Part shown: in pieces, positions 1,820 through 64,000 of the stretch
How the letters are laid out: every line of letters begins with the position of its first letter
Numbering within the stretch: the first letter of the stretch is position 1
Origin: Zunongwangia sp. ESRF-bin46
GTDB taxonomy: Bacteria; Bacteroidota; Bacteroidia; Flavobacteriales; Flavobacteriaceae
Direction: 5' to 3'
DNA: 64,000 bases
Assembly (NCBI GenBank): GCA_002631855.1
Contig: NTLF01000020.1
Location: 248,001 to 312,000 of the forward strand
Program-made: the position numbers and the translations under genes
The notes under the pieces: generated by a model
Databases searched by the model: none
The model's input: the letters and a program-made list of their open reading frames with translations, nothing else
Told to the model about the DNA's origin: nothing

Positions 1820-4800
1820 ATGAGAAAAATTACTTTATTAATGGCATTTATTGCGACCACGTTTATGTGGCAAATGAATGCTCAAACGTACAACGGGGAT
1901 AATACGGGGGCCGTCATAGATGGTTCTGCTGATGTCCTTTCTGCTGCTAATGTGCCCCTAATGGGTAATGTAGGAGCTGAAATAATATTGGATAATGTCA
2001 CCATAGATATTACCCATTCCTGGGACAGTGATTTAGATATTTATCTTGAGTCACCTATGGGGACAACTTTAGCTTTATCACTTGCCAATGGTGGTTCTGG
2101 AGATGATTACACAAATACTCAATTTGAAGATGGCGGCGACGATATAAATGGTGCTTCAGCACCTTTTACAGGCGTTTTTGAACCAGAAGGAGGAACTTTT
2201 GCTTCAACTTTTGATGGAGAAGATGCTAATGGTGATTGGATATTGAGAATTGATGATGCTTTTCCTGGGAGTGACGATGGAGTGTTTAATTCATTCTCTA
2301 TTACAGTTACTCAAATAATTGGAGACCCGCCAGTTATAGCGTGTCCTTCCGATCAAATGGTAGACACTGACCCAACAGAATGTGGTGCCATTGTTAACTT
2401 TGCAGATGCAATTGCACTTGATACCGAAGACGGACCAATTACAGCAGTACAGACTATGGGTCCTGCTAGCGGAACACAATTCCCTACAGGTGATACCATT
2501 GTAGAATTTACTGCAACGGATAGCGACGGAAACGAGTCAACCTGTCAATTTACCGTTACGGTAACCGATATGGAAGCACCAGAGGCTTTGTGTCAAAACC
2601 TAACATTAGATTTAATGGGTGGATCGTCGGTATCTATTACCCCAGCTGATATTGACAATGGTTCTTCAGATAACTGTGGAATTGTAGACTACTCTTTAGA
2701 CATGGACACGTTTACGTGTGCCAATACAGGTGACAATACTGTTACTTTAACTGTAACTGACGAAGAAGGAAATTCTACCACATGTACAGCTACGGTTACT
2801 ATTGAAGATACTACAGCCCCTGAGATCACTTGTGTAGGTGAACCAGGGATTTTTAATATCCTAGAAGAATTTGAAGCGGCTACTATCCCAGCAGGATGGA
2901 CAACAGTTGTTGAATCCGGAGTGGACGATTGGGCTTTTGGTTCAGGAGATATGCCTGGGTCAACAGATGATTTCCCAACCAACGCAGCTATTTTTGATGA
3001 CGATGCAGCAGGAAGTGGACAGGTAAACCTAGTAAGGTTACTTTCACCTGTGTACGATATTTCAGCAGCTGCATCAGCCGATCTAAACTTTGATTACTCT
3101 TTACAGGATTTTGCAGGTGATGGAGATTTCTTTGTAGAAGTATGGGACGGTTCTGCTTGGCAGGAAATCCTTTTTGTAACAGAAGACACACCTCCAACAA
3201 GCTTAGGCACAACAGATATGATGCCCTTTGCAAATCCAGATTTCCAAGTGCGTTTTACGTATGATGACAATGGCGGCTTTGCTTGGGGAGCTGGTGTAGA
3301 TAACTTCGCCTTAAACTATGAATTATCTACCTCTCCACCATTAGAAGTTGCACTGGATGCTAGCGGAAATGCTACAATCCCTGCTGACGATCTAATCCAG
3401 ACCGTTACTGAATCTTGTGGTTATACTGTAACCGTAGGAGGCCCTGCTACAGGCGGTGGTTCAACTACTGAAACATTAGAAACTACTTTTGCAGGTGGAA
3501 ATGGTCTTGATGGTGCTATGTTTGATATTGTAGCCATTAACGAAGTTACTATTAACTCTTTTGACGTTAACTTGGATACAGGTATAACTGATGATGTAGA
3601 AGTATATTACAAATCTGGAACGTGGGTAGGTTTTGAAGAAGACGCTGCTGCTTGGACTTTACTTGGTACGGCCAATGTAACTTCGGCAGGTGATGGTCTT
3701 CCTACACCATTGAACCTAAGTTTAGGACAAACAATCGCTGAAGGTGAAACAGGTGCATTTTATGTAACGACTACTGCAGGTGGTATGAACTATACGGATG
3801 GTACAACAACTGGAGCTGTATTTGCTTCTGATGATAATATCGAATTTTTAGAAGGAGCTGGAAAATCATATCCTTTTGGAGGTTCAACATTTGACCCTCG
3901 TGTTTTCAATGGAAATATTATTTATGATGTAGGACCTCCAGTAGACAATAACGTTAGTTTTGACTGTTCTATGTTGGGTGAAAACCAAATAGAGGTGTTT
4001 GTTACCGATGATAGTGGAAACTTTAGTTCTTGTACTGCAACTGTAAATGTGATTGATATCACTGCACCTGTTATTACCTGTGCTGGTAATCCAGGTCCTG
4101 TAAGTATTCTTGAAGAATTTGAAGGAAGTACTATTCCAGATGGATGGAGTACTGTTATAGATGCTGGTGTTCAAGATTGGACTTTTGGTTCAGGTGAAAT
4201 GCCTTCTGGCCCAAGTTTCTCAACTAACGCAGCTATTTTTGATGACGATGCAGCAGGAAGTGGTGAAGTTAACTTTGCTACTTTATATTCTCCTGTATAT
4301 GACATAACAGGTTCTAGTACAGCTTCTATCTCATTTGATTACACTATGGAAGATTTCCTAGGCGCTGGGATATTCATCGTAGAAGTTTATGACGGTTCTG
4401 CTTGGCAAGAAGTACTTTTTGCTGATGCAAGTACAGGTCTTGTAAACTCAGGAATGATTGATATGTTACCATATTTAAATGAAGCCTTCCAGGTTAGATT
4501 TACTTATGATGATGAAGGCTCTTGGGCTTGGGGTGCAGGTGTAGATAACTTCCAGTTAAACTATGAAGTTACCGAAATCACACCTGTTGATATAGAACTT
4601 GGACCTGACGGAACTGCTACTATCGATCCTAACAGCTTGATCCAAAACGTTGACGAAGCTTGTGGGATTTCCACAGTAGCTTCTGATATCACTGAAGTGA
4701 GCTGTGCCGATATCGGTACGCCAATGACCATTACGATTTTTGCAAGCGATGCAAGCGGGAACATTGCCTCTTGTACTGCTGAAATCAACGTGGTTGATAC

Positions 4801-5326
4801 AGTGGCACCAGAAGTGACCTGCCCTGAAGATCAATCTGTAGATCCAGGGGAAGGAAACCTGTTCTATGAAGTACCTGATTATTTTGCAACCGGAGAAGGT
4901 TCTGCACTGGACAACTGTACAGACCCTGTGTCAATAACAACACAAGACCCAGCACCAGGAGAATTAATTCCTGATGGTGAGTACACGGTTACATTGACTG
5001 CTGAAGATGAGTACGGAAATGTAGGTACTTGTAGCTTCCAGTTGACTGTTGAAAGTGTATTAGGTGTAGATGACAACTCTTTGAGTTCTTCTATAGCTAT
5101 GTACCCTAACCCAGCTGATAGCCAGGTTACCATTACCAATAAATCAAACATCGCATTGCAAAATGCAGTGGTTTATGACATCAATGGTAAACTGATCAGC
5201 CAATACGACCTTAGCAATATGCAAGGAGAACGGGTGATCGATGTTTCGGCATTGGCGTCTGGAGTGTACGTGGTACAGATTACAAGCGATAAGTCAAGCG
5301 TTTCAAAACGATTGATCAAGGAGTAA
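1820..5326 (+). CDS. Secreted multidomain protein with P-domain, HYR repeats and T9SS sorting domain
   Basis: A 1168-residue secreted protein. Residues 1-21 form a signal peptide ending in NAQ. Residues about 25-165 resemble a proprotein-convertase P-domain (WDSDLDIYLESPMGT, then DANGDWILRIDD). HYR-like immunoglobulin folds follow at about 168-250 and 252-335. Two copies of a choice-of-anchor-J/MAM-like jelly roll lie at about 343-505 and 765-920 (EEFE, then SPVYDI, then WGAGVDNF), separated by an unrelated segment. Further HYR-type modules follow, and a C-terminal type A sorting domain (MYPNPADSQVTI, SGVYVVQI, KRLIKE) marks export by the type IX system. No catalytic domain is visible, so an adhesive or carbohydrate-binding surface role is the most I would infer. 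The two jelly-roll copies share long identical DNA stretches, pointing to a recent internal duplication. Confidence 0.85.
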   Translation: MRKITLLMAFIATTFMWQMNAQTYNGDNTGAVIDGSADVLSAANVPLMGNVGAEIILDNVTIDITHSWDSDLDIYLESPMGTTLALSLANGGSGDDYTNTQFEDGGDDINGASAPFTGVFEPEGGTFASTFDGEDANGDWILRIDDAFPGSDDGVFNSFSITVTQIIGDPPVIACPSDQMVDTDPTECGAIVNFADAIALDTEDGPITAVQTMGPASGTQFPTGDTIVEFTATDSDGNESTCQFTVTVTDMEAPEALCQNLTLDLMGGSSVSITPADIDNGSSDNCGIVDYSLDMDTFTCANTGDNTVTLTVTDEEGNSTTCTATVTIEDTTAPEITCVGEPGIFNILEEFEAATIPAGWTTVVESGVDDWAFGSGDMPGSTDDFPTNAAIFDDDAAGSGQVNLVRLLSPVYDISAAASADLNFDYSLQDFAGDGDFFVEVWDGSAWQEILFVTEDTPPTSLGTTDMMPFANPDFQVRFTYDDNGGFAWGAGVDNFALNYELSTSPPLEVALDASGNATIPADDLIQTVTESCGYTVTVGGPATGGGSTTETLETTFAGGNGLDGAMFDIVAINEVTINSFDVNLDTGITDDVEVYYKSGTWVGFEEDAAAWTLLGTANVTSAGDGLPTPLNLSLGQTIAEGETGAFYVTTTAGGMNYTDGTTTGAVFASDDNIEFLEGAGKSYPFGGSTFDPRVFNGNIIYDVGPPVDNNVSFDCSMLGENQIEVFVTDDSGNFSSCTATVNVIDITAPVITCAGNPGPVSILEEFEGSTIPDGWSTVIDAGVQDWTFGSGEMPSGPSFSTNAAIFDDDAAGSGEVNFATLYSPVYDITGSSTASISFDYTMEDFLGAGIFIVEVYDGSAWQEVLFADASTGLVNSGMIDMLPYLNEAFQVRFTYDDEGSWAWGAGVDNFQLNYEVTEITPVDIELGPDGTATIDPNSLIQNVDEACGISTVASDITEVSCADIGTPMTITIFASDASGNIASCTAEINVVDTVAPEVTCPEDQSVDPGEGNLFYEVPDYFATGEGSALDNCTDPVSITTQDPAPGELIPDGEYTVTLTAEDEYGNVGTCSFQLTVESVLGVDDNSLSSSIAMYPNPADSQVTITNKSNIALQNAVVYDINGKLISQYDLSNMQGERVIDVSALASGVYVVQITSDKSSVSKRLIKE

Positions 5327-5351
5327 TCCTATCATAATAACCAACCAAAGC

Positions 5352-5383
5352 AAAACCCCTTCACAAATTTGTGAAGGGGTTTT
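5352..5383. terminator. Bidirectional terminator between convergent genes
   Basis: A perfect 32-base palindrome with 16-base arms (arm AAAACCCCTTCACAAA) ends in T-runs on both strands. It sits between the large secreted-protein gene and the minus-strand THX gene, so it can terminate both. Confidence 0.85.
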
Positions 5384-5416
5384 CATTTTATATAATATTA
5401 AAAAGATGGTAAGTTG

Positions 5417-5542
5417 CTATTTGTTTTTAGTTCCTTTTACGGTTTTAGGTTTTATTTTAAACTTCCCACGTTTTGGGCGAAGTTTACCATAACTCCCAAT
5501 AGCAATTTTACCTCTTTTGGTTTTCTTATCTCCTTTACCCAT
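5417..5542 (-). CDS. 30S ribosomal protein THX
   Basis: A 41-residue, very basic protein starting MGKGDKKTKRGKIAIGSYGK and continuing LRPKRGKFKIKPK, which I recognise as the THX (Thx/S31e-like) family. THX is a small-subunit protein described from Thermus that sits in the head of the 30S particle and is widespread in Bacteroidota. About 40% of residues are Lys or Arg, as expected for rRNA binding. Its ATG overlaps the stop codon of the upstream 42-residue gene (TAATG), implying translational coupling. It ends just before the palindromic terminator. The gene is short enough to be missed by standard gene callers. Confidence 0.85.
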   Translation of the reverse strand: MGKGDKKTKRGKIAIGSYGKLRPKRGKFKIKPKTVKGTKNK

Positions 5543-5670
5543 TATTTTTTGTTTTGTTGATCTTTAATGGTTTTCTCATCAATATCTACCTCATTTGTTT
5601 CTTGATTTGGTTTACCGGTAGGATTGGTAGGGTTCTTTTGTTTTTCTTTACGTTCAAACTTCTTAGCCAT
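5542..5670 (-). CDS. Small Lys-rich hypothetical protein coupled to THX
   Basis: A 42-residue hydrophilic protein beginning MAKKFERKEKQKNPTNPTGK, with a basic first third and an acidic second half (EVDIDEKTIKDQQ). I recognise no family. Support for it as a real gene comes from its clean ATG, its TAATG overlap with the THX start and its protein-like composition. It may be a ribosome-associated peptide or mainly a translational-coupling leader for THX; both are inference. It has no signal peptide or membrane segment. Confidence 0.6.
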   Translation of the reverse strand: MAKKFERKEKQKNPTNPTGKPNQETNEVDIDEKTIKDQQNKK

Positions 5671-5753
5671 AATGTTATAATTTTAAATTCAAGAGAAAGC
5701 TAAAAATAATCAATCATAATTTGTATTAATAACCTACTAAAGTATGGTTAAAA

Positions 5754-6515
5754 TTAACGTAACTGCTTAATAAAGGACGTAATACCTGATAATCCATCAT
5801 TTGTTAATGTCTTAATAAAAGCACTGCCTATAATGGCTCCCTTGGCTTTTAGTGTAGCTTGTGAAAAGGTTTCAGCATTATTAATACCAAAACCGACTAT
5901 TTGTGGATTATTCAGTTGTAATTCATCGATTCTATTAAAATATGAAATTTGCTCTTCAGCAAATCCAGAAGTTTTACCCGTAGTACTGGCGCTACTTACC
6001 ATATAAATAAACCCATTTGAAGCTTCATCAATTTCTCTAATTCTTTCTTCTGAAGTTTGCGGGGTGATCAAAAATATATTGGCGAGGTTATGTTTTTCAA
6101 AAAGTTGTCGATAATGTAAATTATATTCAGCTAAGGGTAAATCAGGTAAAATAAGTCCATCAATACCAATTTCAGCACATTTCTTACAAAATGCCTCTAC
6201 GCCGTATTGTAAAACTGGATTAAAATACCCCATAATAATTAATGGAATGGAAATATGGTCACGGATACCTTCCAATTGTTTAAATAAGATTTCAGTGGTC
6301 ATTCCGTTTTTCAATGCTTCCGTAGAACTTGCCTGTATAGTTGGTCCATCAGCTAAAGGATCGCTAAACGGTAAACCTATTTCAACTATATCAACGCCGT
6401 TTTCTTCCAATGATTTCAAAACCGGAATGGTATCATCCAAATTTGGGAACCCAGCTGTAAAATAAATGGATAATAGCTTTTTATCTTGTTGTAATGCTTT
6501 TTGTATTCGTTTCAT
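5754..6515 (-). CDS. trpA: Tryptophan synthase alpha chain
   Basis: A 253-residue TIM-barrel subunit that cleaves indole-3-glycerol phosphate to indole and glyceraldehyde 3-phosphate, working as an alpha2-beta2 complex with TrpB. The catalytic Glu and Asp sit in VEIGLPFSDPLADGPT (E47 and D58). The active-site loop region and the phosphate-binding VGFGINN and GAIIGSAFIK segments are intact. It is the last gene of trpDCFBA, and its start overlaps the trpB stop by one base (TAATG), which fits stoichiometric coupling of the two subunits. Confidence 0.97.
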   Translation of the reverse strand: MKRIQKALQQDKKLLSIYFTAGFPNLDDTIPVLKSLEENGVDIVEIGLPFSDPLADGPTIQASSTEALKNGMTTEILFKQLEGIRDHISIPLIIMGYFNPVLQYGVEAFCKKCAEIGIDGLILPDLPLAEYNLHYRQLFEKHNLANIFLITPQTSEERIREIDEASNGFIYMVSSASTTGKTSGFAEEQISYFNRIDELQLNNPQIVGFGINNAETFSQATLKAKGAIIGSAFIKTLTNDGLSGITSFIKQLR

Positions 6516-7696
6516 TATAAGTTGAAATAATCGATGTATGTATTTAAATCTTTGTCACCGCGACCGCTTAGGTTAATAACGATAACATCGTCTTTTTTAA
6601 ATTGTCTATTTTTAAAAATAGCAAGCGCATGACTGGTTTCGATCGCCGGAATAATACCCTCCAGTTTGCTTAATTCCAATCCAGCCTCCATAGCTTCGGT
6701 ATCGGTAATCGAAATAAATTCTCCGCGTCCACTAGCAAATAGATGAGCGTGCATTGGGCCTACACCTGGATAATCTAATCCTGCCGAAATAGAATAAGGC
6801 TCTGTTATCTGTCCATCGGTTGTTTGCATTAATAGAGTTTTACTTCCGTGGATAATCCCCGGTTTTCCTAAAACCGAAGTAGCAGCACTTTCTCCGCTTT
6901 TTATGCCTTTTCCGGCAGCTTCCACAGCAATAATACCCACATCTGGATTGTCGAGATAATGATAATAAGCTCCGGCGGCATTACTTCCTCCGCCTACACA
7001 TGCGACAACATAGTCTGGATTCTCTTTTCCTTCTTTTTCTAATAGTTGGGTTTTTATTTCCTCTGAAATCAAACTTTGGAAGCGTGCCACCATATCAGGG
7101 TACGGATGCGGACCTACCACGCTACCAATAATATAATGGGTGTCGGTAGGATTGTTAATCCAATCCCGAATCGCTTCGTTGGTAGCATCTTTTAGTGTTT
7201 TACTGCCGCTCGTTGCAGGAATTACAGTAGCGCCAAGCATTTTCATACGAGCTACATTAGGAGCTTGTCGATCCATATCAATTGCTCCCATATACACAAC
7301 ACATTCTATGCCCATAAGTGCACAGACCGTTGCTGTTGCTACACCGTGTTGTCCAGCTCCAGTTTCGGCAATAATACGATTTTTGCCTAATCTCTTTGCC
7401 ATTAATATCTGCCCAATGGTGTTGTTTACTTTATGTGCTCCGGTATGGCAAAGGTCTTCCCTTTTTAGATAAATATTGGTGTTATATGTTGAAGAAAACC
7501 GTTTGGCATAATATAATGGGGTAGGGCGACCAACATATTCTTTAAGAAGTTGTTTAAATTCCTCTTGAAAGCTAGTTTCCTGCATCACATCAAGGTATTG
7601 TTGACGCAACTCTTCTACGTTGGGGTATAGCATTTCGGGTATATACGCCCCGCCAAACTCGCCATAATAGCCATTTTCATTTACGTGATAACTCAT
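6515..7696 (-). CDS. trpB: Tryptophan synthase beta chain
   Basis: A 393-residue PLP enzyme that condenses indole with serine to form tryptophan. The Schiff-base lysine is in CHTGAHKVNNTIGQ, the catalytic Glu is in AETGAGQHGVAT, and the phosphate-binding glycine loop is CVGGGSNAAG. Length and motifs match the classical TrpB1 type. It sits between trpF and trpA in the operon, overlapping trpF by 4 bases (ATGA) and trpA by 1 base. Confidence 0.98.
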   Translation of the reverse strand: MSYHVNENGYYGEFGGAYIPEMLYPNVEELRQQYLDVMQETSFQEEFKQLLKEYVGRPTPLYYAKRFSSTYNTNIYLKREDLCHTGAHKVNNTIGQILMAKRLGKNRIIAETGAGQHGVATATVCALMGIECVVYMGAIDMDRQAPNVARMKMLGATVIPATSGSKTLKDATNEAIRDWINNPTDTHYIIGSVVGPHPYPDMVARFQSLISEEIKTQLLEKEGKENPDYVVACVGGGSNAAGAYYHYLDNPDVGIIAVEAAGKGIKSGESAATSVLGKPGIIHGSKTLLMQTTDGQITEPYSISAGLDYPGVGPMHAHLFASGRGEFISITDTEAMEAGLELSKLEGIIPAIETSHALAIFKNRQFKKDDVIVINLSGRGDKDLNTYIDYFNL

Positions 7697-8334
7697 AAGT
7701 TTGATTGTATTGTCTTCAGTTTATCCATAAACTGTTGTAGTTGTTTTGTGTTTTTTAAGCCGGACCTGTCTTCAAATTTACTGTTTACATCAATAGCAAA
7801 GATTGGGAGGTTGGTTTTTAGTATTTCTGAAAGTTGCTCTACTTCATCCAAACCAATTCCGCCACTAAGTACAAAAGGTGTTGATGAAGGATAATTTTTT
7901 AAAATATTCCAGTTAAAAGCGTAGCCATTTCCGCCTTTTTCTTTTCCTTTCGTGTCAAAAAGAAAAGCAGAAACATAGGGCTCATACTCTTTTAATATTG
8001 AAAAATTGAAAGTGTCTTTTATGCCAAAAACTTTCCATATTTCACAACTTATCTCTTCTGAATTAGCCAATTCTTCACAAAAGGAAGGGGTTTCATCTCC
8101 ATGTAATTGAATAACGTCTAACTGAAATTGCTTTGCTTTGTTTAAAACTTCAGAAATAGTGGCATTAACAAAAACACCTACTTTTTTTACTTCAGAAGGA
8201 AGCGAAGGGATGTCACCTTCAAAGTTACGAGGCGAATCCTCGTAAAAAATAAAACCTACATAATCCGGTTGCAGAGCAGCTACCTTCAATAGGTTGTGTT
8301 TTATCCCACAGACTTTTAATTGAATGTTTTTCAT
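7693..8334 (-). CDS. trpF: Phosphoribosylanthranilate isomerase
   Basis: A 213-residue TIM-barrel enzyme that isomerises N-(5'-phosphoribosyl)anthranilate to the carboxyphenylamino-deoxyribulose phosphate. The catalytic Cys lies in the N-terminal LKVCGIK motif and the general acid Asp in the late FAIDVNSKFE segment. The VQLHGDE-type strand appears as VIQLHGDE. It is a separate gene, not fused to trpC as in E. coli. Overlaps of 4 bases with both trpC and trpB indicate one tightly coupled operon. Confidence 0.96.
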   Translation of the reverse strand: MKNIQLKVCGIKHNLLKVAALQPDYVGFIFYEDSPRNFEGDIPSLPSEVKKVGVFVNATISEVLNKAKQFQLDVIQLHGDETPSFCEELANSEEISCEIWKVFGIKDTFNFSILKEYEPYVSAFLFDTKGKEKGGNGYAFNWNILKNYPSSTPFVLSGGIGLDEVEQLSEILKTNLPIFAIDVNSKFEDRSGLKNTKQLQQFMDKLKTIQSNL

Positions 8335-9113
8335 TGTAGCTGATCTATAAATTGTTTGGCGCTTTCTCCCGGATTGTCAGTTTTCATAAATGTTTCACCT
8401 ATTAGAAATCCTTTATAACCGTAGTTGCTCAAGGTTTTAATGGTTTCTGGGTTGCTAATGCCACTTTCCGAAACCTTCACAAAGTCATTCGGTATTTTTT
8501 CTGAAAGTTCTTTACTAATGTCAATAGAAACCTCAAATGTTTTTAAATTTCTATTGTTTACACCTAACATATCGACAGTTGGCAACAAGGACCGTTGAAG
8601 TTCTGCTTCATTATGTGCTTCCAATAAAACATCCAATCCTAAATTTTTTGCCGTTTTTGAAAATTCCTTTAATTGATTATCACTCAAGGAAGCAGCAATT
8701 AGTAGAATGGCATCGGCACCATACGCTTTCGCTTCATAAATTTGATACGGATCAATGATGAATTCTTTACGTAACAGCGGAATATCCACACAGTTTCTAG
8801 CCAATACCAAATCATCTAAGGATCCGCCAAAATATTTGGTGTCCGTTAAAACCGAAATGCCGCAAACGCCTGCATTGCGGTAACCTGTGACAACTTCAGG
8901 TAAATTTACTTGATCATTGATAACCGATTTACTGGGCGAACGCCTTTTGTGTTCAGCGATAATCCCAGTGGTTGAATTGCGTAGCGAGGTAGCTAACGAA
9001 ATAGGGGTGCGGTTAAATGCTTCCGATTTCTCTAAAAGGGTTATAGGAAAGAGCGCTTTTTTAGCGTTAACTTCCTTTATTTTATTCTGAATAATTTTGT
9101 CTAAAATAGTCAT
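8331..9113 (-). CDS. trpC: Indole-3-glycerol phosphate synthase
   Basis: A 260-residue TIM-barrel enzyme that closes the indole ring from carboxyphenylamino-deoxyribulose phosphate. The catalytic signature IIAEHKRRSPSKSVI includes the conserved Glu and Lys, and the strands LLRKEFIIDPYQI, LLEAHNEAEL, GVNNRNLKTFEV and VSESGI are all present. It follows trpD with no intergenic bases and overlaps trpF by 4 bases. Confidence 0.97.
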   Translation of the reverse strand: MTILDKIIQNKIKEVNAKKALFPITLLEKSEAFNRTPISLATSLRNSTTGIIAEHKRRSPSKSVINDQVNLPEVVTGYRNAGVCGISVLTDTKYFGGSLDDLVLARNCVDIPLLRKEFIIDPYQIYEAKAYGADAILLIAASLSDNQLKEFSKTAKNLGLDVLLEAHNEAELQRSLLPTVDMLGVNNRNLKTFEVSIDISKELSEKIPNDFVKVSESGISNPETIKTLSNYGYKGFLIGETFMKTDNPGESAKQFIDQLQ

Positions 9114-60664: not shown

Positions 60665-62851
60665 ATGTCAACTTTACGATTTCACGCAATCAAAGAAACC
60701 TTTAACAGAAAACCTGTTGAGGTGCAAGAACCTGAACGTCGTTCTGCTATCTTCGGAAAAAACGTATTTAACGAGTCGGCCATGCGCCAATACTTGACAA
60801 AAACGTCTTACAATAGTGTAATGGATGCTATTGAAAACGGAAAAAAGATAGAACGTAGTGTAGCAGATCACATTTCAACAGGAATGAAAGAATGGGCCAT
60901 TTCAAAAGGAGCAACCCATTACACACACTGGTTTCAACCATTAACAGGCGCAACTGCTGAAAAGCACGATGCTTTTTTTGAAACGATCGATAACGGTCAA
61001 AGTATAGAAAAATTTGGCGGTGGACAGTTGGTACAACAAGAGCCAGATGCTTCCAGTTTTCCTCACGGTGGAATAAGAAATACTTTCGAAGCTCGTGGTT
61101 ATACAGCTTGGGATCCTACCTCACCTGCTTTTTTATATGGAACCACACTATGTATTCCAACTGTTTTTGTTTCATATACAGGTGAGGCGTTAGACTATAA
61201 AACACCATTATTGCGTGCATTGCAAACAGTAGATCAAGCAGCAACCGCTGTTGCAAAATATTTTGATAAAAGTGTTACAAAAGTAAATCCAACACTTGGA
61301 TGGGAGCAAGAATATTTCCTTATTGATAAAGCACTAGCATTATCTCGCCCAGACATTATGCTATCCGGCCGAACCTTATTAGGTCATTCTTCACCAAAAG
61401 GACAGCAGTTGGACGATCATTACTTTGGTTCCATTCCGTCACGTGTCCTTAATTATATGCGTGATTTGGAAACTGAATGTATGTTATTGGGTATTCCCGT
61501 AAAAACAAGACACAATGAAGTAGCTCCAAATCAATTTGAATTGGCGCCAATTTTTGAAGAAACCAACCTTGCCGTTGATCATAACTCCTTATTAATGGAT
61601 TTAATGGACAAAATAGCTGACCGACATAACTTTAAAGTATTGTTCCATGAAAAACCATTTGCAGGCGTAAACGGAAGCGGTAAACATAATAACTGGTCAC
61701 TGGCTACTAATACAGGAGTTAACTTATTGGGTCCAGGAAGTACACCGATGAAGAACCTTCAGTTTTTAACCTTTTTCATTAATACGTTAAAAGCGGTAAA
61801 CGATCACGAAGAATTATTAAGAGCATCAATTGCAGGAGCAAGCAACGATCACCGTTTGGGAGCTAACGAAGCGCCACCGGCTATTATTTCTGCTTTTATT
61901 GGTTCACAGTTAACCGATGTATTAGATGAATTGGAAAAAGTAACAGATGGAAAACTATCTCCTCAGGAAAAAACAGACCTTAAATTAAACGTGGTAGGTA
62001 AAATTCCTGAAATTTTGATGGATAATACTGACAGAAACCGTACTTCGGCTTTTGCCTTTACTGGTAATAAGTTTGAGTTTCGTGCTGTAGGCTCTACTGC
62101 AAACTGCGCCAACCCGATGACTGTGCTCAATGCGATTGTTGCAAAACAGTTGATTGACTTTAAAGAAAAAGTTGACAAGCTTATTAAAGGTAAGAAGATG
62201 AAGAAAGACGATGCCATCTTTAATGTGCTGAGAGAATATATCAAAGACTCTAAACGTATTCGCTTTGAAGGAGATGGATATGGAGAGGCTTGGGAAAAAG
62301 AGGCTAAAAAACGCGGTTTAAGTAATAATAAAACAACTCCAGATGCTTTAAAAGCAAGAGTTTCTAAAGAATCAATCGCGCTTTTTGAAGAGCTTAACAT
62401 AATGAGCAAAGTAGAAATTGAGGCTCGTTATGAAATTGAAATGGAAGAATACGCTATGCGCATTCAAATAGAAGGAAGGGTGCTTGGCGATATTGCAAGG
62501 AACCACGTGATCCCTACAGCGATTCAGTATCAAAATATATTGATAAGAAACGTTAGGGGCTTAAAGGAAATTTATGAAGACAACTTCAAAAAATTTGCTG
62601 GGGAACAATTAAACCTTATCGAAAAAATTTCACATCATATTGAAAGTATTAATAAGGGAATTACAGAAATGATTGAAGAGCGTAAAAAAGCAAACAAGAT
62701 AGATAATGCTGAAAAACGGGCTAAGGCATACTGTAATAACGTAAAACCATACTTTGATGAAATACGGTATCATAGTGATAAATTAGAGCTTTTAGTCGAT
62801 GATGAGATATGGCCTTTAACCAAATACAGAGAGTTATTATTTACTAAATAA
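60665..62851 (+). CDS. glnN: Glutamine synthetase type III
   Basis: A 728-residue GSIII enzyme that makes glutamine from glutamate, ammonia and ATP as a large oligomer. The N-terminal extension with the GSIII-specific segments (ERRSAIFGKNVFNESAMR and HYTHWFQPLTGATAEKHDAF) and the catalytic motifs (GWEQEYFLID, NGSGKHNNWS, RTSAFAFTGNKFEFRAVGS) match this class, which is the common form in Bacteroidota. It is far longer than type I (about 470 residues). The C-terminal 150 residues are helical. It is monocistronic with a strong terminator. Confidence 0.97.
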   Translation: MSTLRFHAIKETFNRKPVEVQEPERRSAIFGKNVFNESAMRQYLTKTSYNSVMDAIENGKKIERSVADHISTGMKEWAISKGATHYTHWFQPLTGATAEKHDAFFETIDNGQSIEKFGGGQLVQQEPDASSFPHGGIRNTFEARGYTAWDPTSPAFLYGTTLCIPTVFVSYTGEALDYKTPLLRALQTVDQAATAVAKYFDKSVTKVNPTLGWEQEYFLIDKALALSRPDIMLSGRTLLGHSSPKGQQLDDHYFGSIPSRVLNYMRDLETECMLLGIPVKTRHNEVAPNQFELAPIFEETNLAVDHNSLLMDLMDKIADRHNFKVLFHEKPFAGVNGSGKHNNWSLATNTGVNLLGPGSTPMKNLQFLTFFINTLKAVNDHEELLRASIAGASNDHRLGANEAPPAIISAFIGSQLTDVLDELEKVTDGKLSPQEKTDLKLNVVGKIPEILMDNTDRNRTSAFAFTGNKFEFRAVGSTANCANPMTVLNAIVAKQLIDFKEKVDKLIKGKKMKKDDAIFNVLREYIKDSKRIRFEGDGYGEAWEKEAKKRGLSNNKTTPDALKARVSKESIALFEELNIMSKVEIEARYEIEMEEYAMRIQIEGRVLGDIARNHVIPTAIQYQNILIRNVRGLKEIYEDNFKKFAGEQLNLIEKISHHIESINKGITEMIEERKKANKIDNAEKRAKAYCNNVKPYFDEIRYHSDKLELLVDDEIWPLTKYRELLFTK

Positions 62852-62880
62852 TTTTAACATAATTTTAACATTTGCATTTA

Positions 62881-62914
62881 AAAGTCGTTTAACGGTAGTT
62901 GAACGACTTTTTTA
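62881..62914 (+). terminator. Terminator of glnN
   Basis: Arms AAAGTCGTT and AACGACTTT around a 12-base loop are followed by a T-run, about 30 bases past the stop codon. Confidence 0.88.
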
Positions 62915-63034
62915 TATGTACGTCCTTTCTTGTTAATTTAATTAATAAGAAAAAACCTACAAATTTTAAAAAAAATATACTTCTACGTGTTAACACTTAT
63001 TATTGTTTGTGTTTTTTTTCGCAAATTTGGATTG

Positions 63035-63062
63035 TATTTCAGTGGGATAGAAAACTGAAATA
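63035..63062. promoter_or_regulatory. 9-base-arm inverted repeat in the curlin-gene upstream region
   Basis: TATTTCAGT (63035-63043) and ACTGAAATA (63054-63062) are perfect complements with a 10-base spacer. It lies about 75 bases upstream of the -33 element and may be an activator site or a hairpin. Confidence 0.5.
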
Positions 63063-63135
63063 TAACTCCTCACTTAAGTCCCTTAATCGCTCAACATTGT
63101 TATTGTACATAAATGTCTGTTTAGTAGAACAGATA

Positions 63136-63164
63136 TTGATTAAAGTAGTCAAGTTTTAAATTTG
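63136..63164 (+). promoter_or_regulatory. Promoter of the curlin-like gene
   Basis: TTG (63136-63138) and TAAATTTG (63157-63164) are separated by 18 bases, matching the flavobacterial -33/-7 consensus. The predicted transcript start near 63171 leaves a leader of about 80 bases. Inverted repeats TCTGTT-N6-AACAGA (63116-63133) and CACATTA-N5-TAATGTG (63182-63200) flank it closely. Confidence 0.65.
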
Positions 63165-63249
63165 ATTATGTATAAAAGTATCACATTATAAATTAATGTG
63201 TGGATTTTTAAAACCAATATAAATCAATTAGTAACTAAATTTTTAAATT

Positions 63250-64000
63250 ATGAAAAAAGTGTTTTTTTGCGCAGTGGCGCTAATGTTAGGAACTGCAGCT
63301 TTCGCTCAGTTTAACCAGAACTTTGTAAATCAAACAGGTTTGTTTAATTTATCCGTTGAAAATCAAAATGGATTATTAAACTTTAATACTGTAGACCAAT
63401 TCGGTATCGCTAACGATTCTGATGTAGACCAAGACGGAGCATTTAACGTTTCTGATACTGACCAAATTGGGTTAGCTAACGAGTCGGATGTGACTCAAGC
63501 TGGAGTTCTTAATGGTTCTTCTGTATTACAGATAGGAGCATTCAACAGTTCAGATGTTGACCAAACAGGTATATTGAACGGATCTTCTGTTACTCAACTT
63601 GGATTTGGAAACAGTTCAGATGTAGACCAATTAGGTATTGCAAACAGTTCAGATGTAGACCAATTAGGTATTGGAAACAGTTCAGATGTTGATCAAATAG
63701 GTATCGGGAACGATTCTGATGTAGATCAAACTGGAGCTTTCAACTCTTCAACTGTTGGACAGTTAGGTTTTGGAAACGAATCTGATGTTACACAAACTGG
63801 ATTAGGAAACTCTTCTACAGTTGCACAAATAGGTGCTGGAAACGATTCTGATGTAGATCAAACTGGTCTTGCAAACGCTTCAAGTGTTCTTCAAATAGGA
63901 CTTGGAAACGAATCTGATGTTGATCAAACAGGTGCTTTTAACAGCTCTACAGTTAACCAATTTGGAATTGGAAATACTTCAGATGTTGACCAATTAGGAC
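63250..64000 (+). CDS. Curlin-repeat (amyloid fibre subunit-like) protein, 3' end outside window
   Basis: At least 250 residues, open to the window edge. The signal peptide MKKVFFCAVALMLGTAAFAQ is followed, after about 30 residues with looser repeats, by at least 17 tandem 11-residue units of the form N-x-S-(D/S/T)-x-x-Q-x-G-x-x. The Gln, Gly and Asn positions match the curlin repeat (QxGxxN) of CsgA/CsgB, each unit forming one beta strand of a solenoid. Acidic SDVDQ units often alternate with SSTVxQ units, giving a 22-residue super-period like curlin's full turn. The protein is probably secreted and self-assembling. Secretion genes such as csgG are not in view and would be expected downstream. 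The repeats contain adjacent identical 33-base DNA copies. Confidence 0.85.
   Translation, partial: MKKVFFCAVALMLGTAAFAQFNQNFVNQTGLFNLSVENQNGLLNFNTVDQFGIANDSDVDQDGAFNVSDTDQIGLANESDVTQAGVLNGSSVLQIGAFNSSDVDQTGILNGSSVTQLGFGNSSDVDQLGIANSSDVDQLGIGNSSDVDQIGIGNDSDVDQTGAFNSSTVGQLGFGNESDVTQTGLGNSSTVAQIGAGNDSDVDQTGLANASSVLQIGLGNESDVDQTGAFNSSTVNQFGIGNTSDVDQLG

What the first reader, a model, noticed from the sequence alone, without database searches (positions are those of the whole stretch)
63250..64000. Asp-rich 11-residue-repeat curlin-like protein at the window edge
Seen: a signal peptide followed by at least 17 tandem units N-x-S-x-V-x-Q-x-G-x-x. Known: curli subunits use QxGxxN repeats in a beta-solenoid amyloid. 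Unlike CsgA, many units carry D-x-D (SDVDQ), which would line a ladder of aspartates along one face of the solenoid. Inference: the fibre could bind Ca2+ or mineral, or assemble in a salt-dependent way, which would suit a marine organism. This is the most plausible novel system in the window, and its partner genes should lie just beyond it.
Basis: partly seen in the sequence, partly recalled or inferred. Interest (0 to 1): 0.7.

Follow-up and report, generated by a model that had tools for sequence, protein, structure and literature searches.

The report
Curli amyloid operon of marine Flavobacteriaceae
The repeat protein at the window edge is the major subunit of a curli amyloid fibre in a Flavobacteriaceae bacterium; its acid-studded surface has a published precedent, and the less expected part is that a partner gene just beyond the window joins an anti-amyloid-chaperone-like domain to the secretion adaptor CsgE.

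Summary
The ORF at 63250 runs past the window to a complete 338-aa curlin (CsgA): 28 QxG units spaced exactly 11 residues apart plus a half unit, Pfam Curlin_rpt E 5e-25. Six same-strand genes follow; CsgE, CsgF and CsgG pass Pfam cut-offs. The predicted fold is a beta-solenoid whose best PDB match is the cryo-EM CsgA of Pontibacter korlensis.

The "unlike CsgA" part is not new. The Pontibacter curlin carries the same NDADIDQ units, and Sleutel et al. 2023 already reported a D/E grid on it, suggested cation-bridged fibril packing, and saw a crust in CaCl2 that they hypothesise is calcium phosphate. Of 109 relative curlin ORFs, 59 are at least as acidic.

What looks undescribed lies downstream. 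CsgE is fused at its N-terminus to a CsgC/CsgH-like domain (the anti-amyloid chaperone fold). CsgG carries an extra C-terminal barrel-like domain, and a lipoprotein-like gene follows. In one other family of the phylum CsgE mostly carries LysM instead, and in others CsgH is a separate gene nearby. The Ca2+ and chaperone functions are inference.

The parts
63250..64000 (+). csgA-like major curlin gene, N-terminal 250 of 338 codons: signal peptide followed by 11-residue repeats; continues beyond the window to G000:C10:312266 (L005:2266)
   Evidence: ORF; Curlin_rpt; repeats; solenoid model
63313..64000 (+). tandem 11-residue curlin units; 10 units in the window part carry Asp at outward positions 4 and 6 (D-x-D), first mainly on the even-unit face, then on the odd-unit face
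62852..63249 (+). AT-rich intergenic leader upstream of csgA with a CTCCTCA-like element and a strongly conserved last ~50 bases before the ATG; probable promoter and 5' leader (inference)
   Evidence: alignment of 10 leaders; no Rfam match in 62800-63300

Best explanation
This is the fibre subunit (CsgA) of a single-cluster curli system of Flavobacteriaceae: csgA - csgB-like - (CsgC/H-like domain fused to CsgE) - csgF - csgG with an extra C-terminal barrel-like domain - lipoprotein-like gene. SHOWN: gene content, order, homology and predicted folds. INFERRED: CsgA and the CsgB-like protein enter the periplasm by the Sec signal; the N-terminal domain of the CsgE fusion keeps them unfolded while its CsgE half caps and feeds the CsgG pore; CsgF couples the pore to the nucleator; CsgA then folds outside as a 14.5-repeat beta-solenoid and stacks into an amyloid fibre. 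Because the monomer has 29 half-turns (odd), successive subunits would present their Asp-rich stretches on alternating sides, as published for the Pontibacter fibre, so divalent cations could bridge neighbouring fibres or seed mineral.
Confidence: 0.93

Rival explanations
1. The Asp rows are a dedicated Ca2+ or mineral-binding device, selected for that purpose.
For: D-x-D recurs on the same face one turn on (lag 2); no Lys or Arg in the mature chain; a close structural relative forms a crust in CaCl2 with phosphate, hypothesised to be calcium phosphate (PMC10192328).
Against: Acidity is spread over several outward positions in relatives, D-x-D is absent in 34 of 109 ORFs, and there is no lag-4 excess. 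The published test used 30 mM CaCl2 on another protein. No residue geometry for a binding site was tested.
Confidence: 0.3
2. The Asp residues mainly keep the fibre and its unfolded precursor soluble and hydrophilic in salt water, without specific ion binding.
For: Median net charge -10.7 per 100 residues in 109 relative curlin ORFs with varied Asp placement; the CsgB-like protein (net +1) and the CsgE fusion (net +3) are not acidic.
Against: Same-face recurrence at lag 2 exceeds shuffles. CsgF (net -15) and the lipoprotein-like protein (net -53) are acidic too. Habitat was not compared.
Confidence: 0.5
3. The protein is a non-curli repeat surface protein such as an adhesin or antifreeze-type solenoid.
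Against: Curlin profile match, CsgE/F/G downstream and conserved order; phmmer finds 8c50 at E 2.5e-32.
Confidence: 0.02
4. The N-terminal domain on CsgE is an unrelated Ig-like domain, not a CsgC/CsgH homologue.
Against: CsgH and CsgC rank first and second by Foldseek with most of each chain aligned; the profile links to Bacteroidota CsgH-type ORFs (two of which pass the CsgH cut-off) and to E. coli CsgC; it is in the right operon.
Confidence: 0.1

Closest known systems
Pontibacter korlensis CsgA R15.5 (PDB 8c50; PMC10192328)
   Different: 14.5 repeats here against 15.5 (the latter read from the name R15.5); D-x-D units change face half-way here; no Lys or Arg here.
E. coli curli system, csgBAC/csgDEFG
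   Same: CsgA-like, CsgB-like, CsgE, CsgF and CsgG all present.
   Different: One co-directional cluster; no csgD or separate csgC among the ORFs listed and no separate CsgH match in the genome; CsgE fused to a CsgC/H-like domain; CsgG longer (470 aa; E. coli length recalled) with an OMP-like C-terminal domain; an extra lipoprotein-like gene.
CsgC/CsgH anti-amyloid chaperones (2xsk, 2n59; PMC4838910)
   Same: Seven-strand beta-sandwich model, detectable profile homology, curli operon context.
   Different: Covalently joined to CsgE; lacks the cysteine pair; inhibitory activity untested.
Bacteroidetes curli operons of Dueholm et al. 2012 (PMC3521004)
   Same: Curli genes in the phylum without csgD (Spirosoma excepted there).
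   Different: That paper says Bacteroidetes lack csgC; here a CsgC/H-like domain is present inside the CsgE gene.

Membership tests
Curli (type VIII secretion) system | Subunit with curlin repeats and a signal peptide | tested here: met
   Curlin_rpt E 5.4e-25, 87.5 bits against cut-off 20.7; N-terminal helix modelled at residues 2-18. No signal-peptide predictor was run.
Curli (type VIII secretion) system | CsgG pore gene nearby | tested here: met
   E 2.8e-67; gene starts 1.9 kb beyond the end of csgA
Curli (type VIII secretion) system | CsgE and CsgF genes nearby | tested here: met
   CsgF E 2.3e-33, CsgE E 3.7e-13
Curli (type VIII secretion) system | Second curlin-like subunit (CsgB) | tested here: inconclusive
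   Adjacent 175-aa ORF with weak Curlin_rpt match, E 0.056, 13.8 bits below cut-off 20.7; a relative found in 78 of 79 loci, next to CsgE in 77
Curli (type VIII secretion) system | Beta-solenoid fold of the subunit | tested here: met
[quoted passage not shown]
   Needs wet work
CsgC/CsgH chaperone family (N-domain of the CsgE fusion) | Seven-strand beta-sandwich of CsgC/CsgH type | tested here: met
CsgC/CsgH chaperone family (N-domain of the CsgE fusion) | Significant sequence-profile match | tested here: inconclusive
   Pfam CsgC E 0.029 below cut-off, no PF21112 CsgH match in the window's genome; custom profile finds five CsgH-type ORFs at E <= 4.2e-7 and E. coli CsgC at 4.9e-4
CsgC/CsgH chaperone family (N-domain of the CsgE fusion) | Cysteine pair (CxC in CsgC, distant pair in CsgH) | tested here: not met
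   No N-domain has two cysteines: none at all in 26 of 26 (A1) and in 32 of 34 (A2, the other two have one). It is therefore called CsgC/H-like, not filed as CsgC or CsgH.
CsgC/CsgH chaperone family (N-domain of the CsgE fusion) | Inhibits CsgA fibrillation | not testable with these tools
   Needs a ThT assay

The most novel reading that the evidence does not exclude
In Flavobacteriales the amyloid-inhibiting CsgC/H-like module is hard-wired to the secretion adaptor CsgE, so holding the subunit unfolded and delivering it to the CsgG pore would be one step done by one ring. At least one other Bacteroidota family has LysM (cell-wall binding) in that position, and some other lineages keep CsgH as a separate gene nearby. 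If CsgE assembles as a nonamer as in E. coli (recalled), nine inhibitor domains would crown the pore entrance.
Probability: 0.5. Interest if true: 0.5.

Novelty: new variant of a known kind. Interest (0 to 1): 0.36.

Why it matters
The acid-surfaced subunit adds another member to a group in which mineral seeding and cation-bridged fibre packing can be tested. They also suggest that 'Bacteroidetes lack csgC' needs revising.

Tried and rejected
Non-curli solenoid: rejected by profile and operon. Single continuous Asp ladder along one face: rejected by unit parity and by the lack of a lag-4 excess. Electrostatic docking of a basic N-domain on acidic CsgA as a conserved rule: rejected, only 9 of 34 N-domains in A2 and 5 of 26 in A1 are net positive. 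Asp richness as unusual: rejected, 59 of 109 relative curlin ORFs are as acidic or more. Regulatory RNA in the csgA leader: no Rfam match at E 0.1 in 62800-63300. Marine link: not tested; judged by name, few of the named relatives are clearly non-marine, so there was little contrast. Foldseek for the solenoid led nowhere. Two paper searches returned nothing: curli with Flavobacteriia and CsgA, and CsgE with LysM and curli.

Bias to note: the 79 named loci (best 80 matches kept of 172) were found with the fused CsgE as query, so 79 of 79 fused (71 as N-C, 5 as N-N-C, 2 with two N-C copies, 1 with an extra separate N) is not a frequency. In a draw of 395 genomes of the phylum by the Pfam CsgE model, 41 had CsgE. 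Of the 29 loci newly fetched there, the N-domain was in the same frame in 5, in the adjoining frame in 2 and not detected in 22. All 22 were then scanned with Pfam: LysM is over the cut-off in 8 (seven of them in one family, f24, one in f43), just below in 1 (f24), and absent at E 0.01 in 13, among them two of f24. In the 199-genome family draw 42 had a match. The 109 curlin ORFs are those of 200 aa or more with nine or more QxG in the 79 loci, paralogues included. L153-L158 were fetched because they matched Pfam CsgH at E 0.01, so one search is a test of linkage and not of frequency.

Full report
OBSERVATION. The ORF at 63250 is open to the window end. The window is G000:C10:248001-312000; the next stretch (L005) completes the gene at L005:1250-2266, 338 aa. 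It has 28 QxG units spaced exactly 11 and a terminal half unit; the longest such run in 2000 residue shuffles was 2. In the window part 17 of 21 units fit N.S.V.Q.G exactly and 10 carry D-x-D. Pfam Curlin_rpt E 5.4e-25.

NEIGHBOURS. On the same strand follow (L005 coordinates): a CsgB-like ORF 2417-2944, CsgE with a long N-terminal extension 2947-3747, csgF 3758-4156, csgG 4162-5574, a lipoprotein-like ORF with a CarboxypepD_reg domain 5581-7083, then a purM-like gene 7140-8354. CsgG E 2.8e-67, CsgF 2.3e-33, CsgE 3.7e-13, one match each in the whole genome. All curlin-repeat matches at E 0.001 in the genome lie in this one gene. The CsgB-like ORF has only a sub-threshold curlin match (E 0.056). 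'Lipoprotein' is read from the N-terminal sequence; no predictor was run. The names purM, and glnN for the glutamine-synthetase-like gene before csgA, are recalled from sequence and come from no family search. glnN-like, CsgB-like, CsgF, CsgG, lipoprotein-like and purM-like genes occur in 61, 78, 79, 79, 79 and 68 of 79 named loci L045-L123; some misses may be due to short contigs. The CsgB-like hit adjoins a CsgE frame in 77 of 78, and the lipoprotein-like frame follows csgG in 79 of 79, within 600 bases in 78. The organism belongs to Flavobacteriaceae: the genome given as same genus (G054) has a contig of the same length, 852,663 bases, as that of the named MAG UBA3356.

ASP PATTERN. Mature CsgA: D28 E4 K0 R0, net -32, pI 4.05. 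Asp sits at outward positions 4 and 6 of N1-x-S3-x-V5-x-Q7. The count at these positions correlates at lag 2 (same face, next turn), r 0.44, 2 of 500 shuffles as high, and not at lag 1; in 109 relative curlin ORFs lag 2 r 0.18, 0 of 500. At lag 4 there is no clear excess here (r 0.14, 90 of 500) and none in relatives (r -0.04, 244 of 500). The pattern changes face half-way. Acidity is common: median -10.7 per 100 residues against -10.1 here, and 59 of 109 are as acidic or more. In print: Sleutel et al. 2023 (PMC10192328; sections 6 and 11 read, plus passages) describe a square Glu/Asp grid on the Pontibacter subunit, propose divalent-cation bridges between fibrils, and report a crust in 30 mM CaCl2 with phosphate that they hypothesise is calcium phosphate. 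The same 8c50 sequence shows NDADIDQ units.

DISTRIBUTION. In genomes of the same family and order drawn by the Pfam CsgE model, five loci have the fusion in one frame and two have the two parts in adjoining frames (L148, L149, both in genus g127). The 22 others, all outside the order, gave no N-domain; LysM is over the cut-off in 8 of these 22, seven of them in one family (f24), one in f43; one more f24 protein is just below and 13 have none. The lineages with a separate CsgH-type gene (f9, f36, f44) are not those with LysM. Five named loci (L074, L078, L081, L099, L123; Olleya, Lutibacter) have two N-domains in one frame before CsgE.

CsgG AND THE LIPOPROTEIN-LIKE GENE. CsgG is 470 aa here; the extension is in the same frame in 78 of 79 named loci, and OMP_b-brl matches at E <= 0.01 in 16 of 19 aligned members, sub-cut-off in our own protein (27.0 against 28.7). 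Functions of both are unknown; anchoring of the fibre or pore is a guess.

LITERATURE. Dueholm 2012 (PMC3521004, parts 1-2 of 5 and passages) states that Bacteroidetes lack csgC and, except Spirosoma, csgD. Taylor 2016 (PMC4838910, passages) mentions a CsgH sub-family in Bacteroidetes; the words fused or fusion do not occur in its main text, nor in Dueholm's. Searches listed no paper that I recognised, from listing or abstract, as describing a CsgC/H-CsgE or LysM-CsgE fusion or the CsgG extension; only open-access PMC was searched and supplements were not.

VERDICT. Known kind of system, known kind of surface; a lineage-specific operon variant with a domain fusion that I did not find described.

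Noticed in passing
L124, L127, L128, L136, L137, L138, L140, L130 (L131 just below cut-off): CsgE of some other Bacteroidota (eight of 22 loci scanned, seven in one family f24) carries an N-terminal LysM domain instead of the CsgC/H-like domain.
   Followed up: partly
L074, L078, L081, L099, L123 (Olleya, Lutibacter); L104: Two CsgC/H-like domains in one frame before CsgE; L104 (Maribacter antarcticus) has an extra separate copy beside the fusion.
   Followed up: partly
L148:1064-1797 and L149:1489-2219: CsgC/H-like domain and CsgE in two overlapping frames, a natural split form; a sequencing frameshift was not excluded.
   Followed up: partly
L005:4162-5574: CsgG has a ~180-residue C-terminal extension resembling a small outer-membrane barrel, conserved in relatives.
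   Followed up: partly
L005:5581-7083: Lipoprotein-like gene with CarboxypepD_reg domain, net charge -53, follows csgG in 79 of 79 named loci; a possible uncharacterised curli component.
   Followed up: partly
L053:5939-7279 and L058:6493-7320: Some relative curlins carry regular Arg in the turns (GNRN, GRRN) next to Asp on the strands, so acidic and basic rows would alternate.
   Followed up: no
window 62852-63249: Long csgA leader with a CTCCTCA-like element at 63066-63072 shared by several of the 10 aligned leaders and a strongly conserved last ~50 bases before the ATG; a CAAATTTG at 63022-63029 could be a Bacteroidota-type -7 box (motif recalled).
   Followed up: partly
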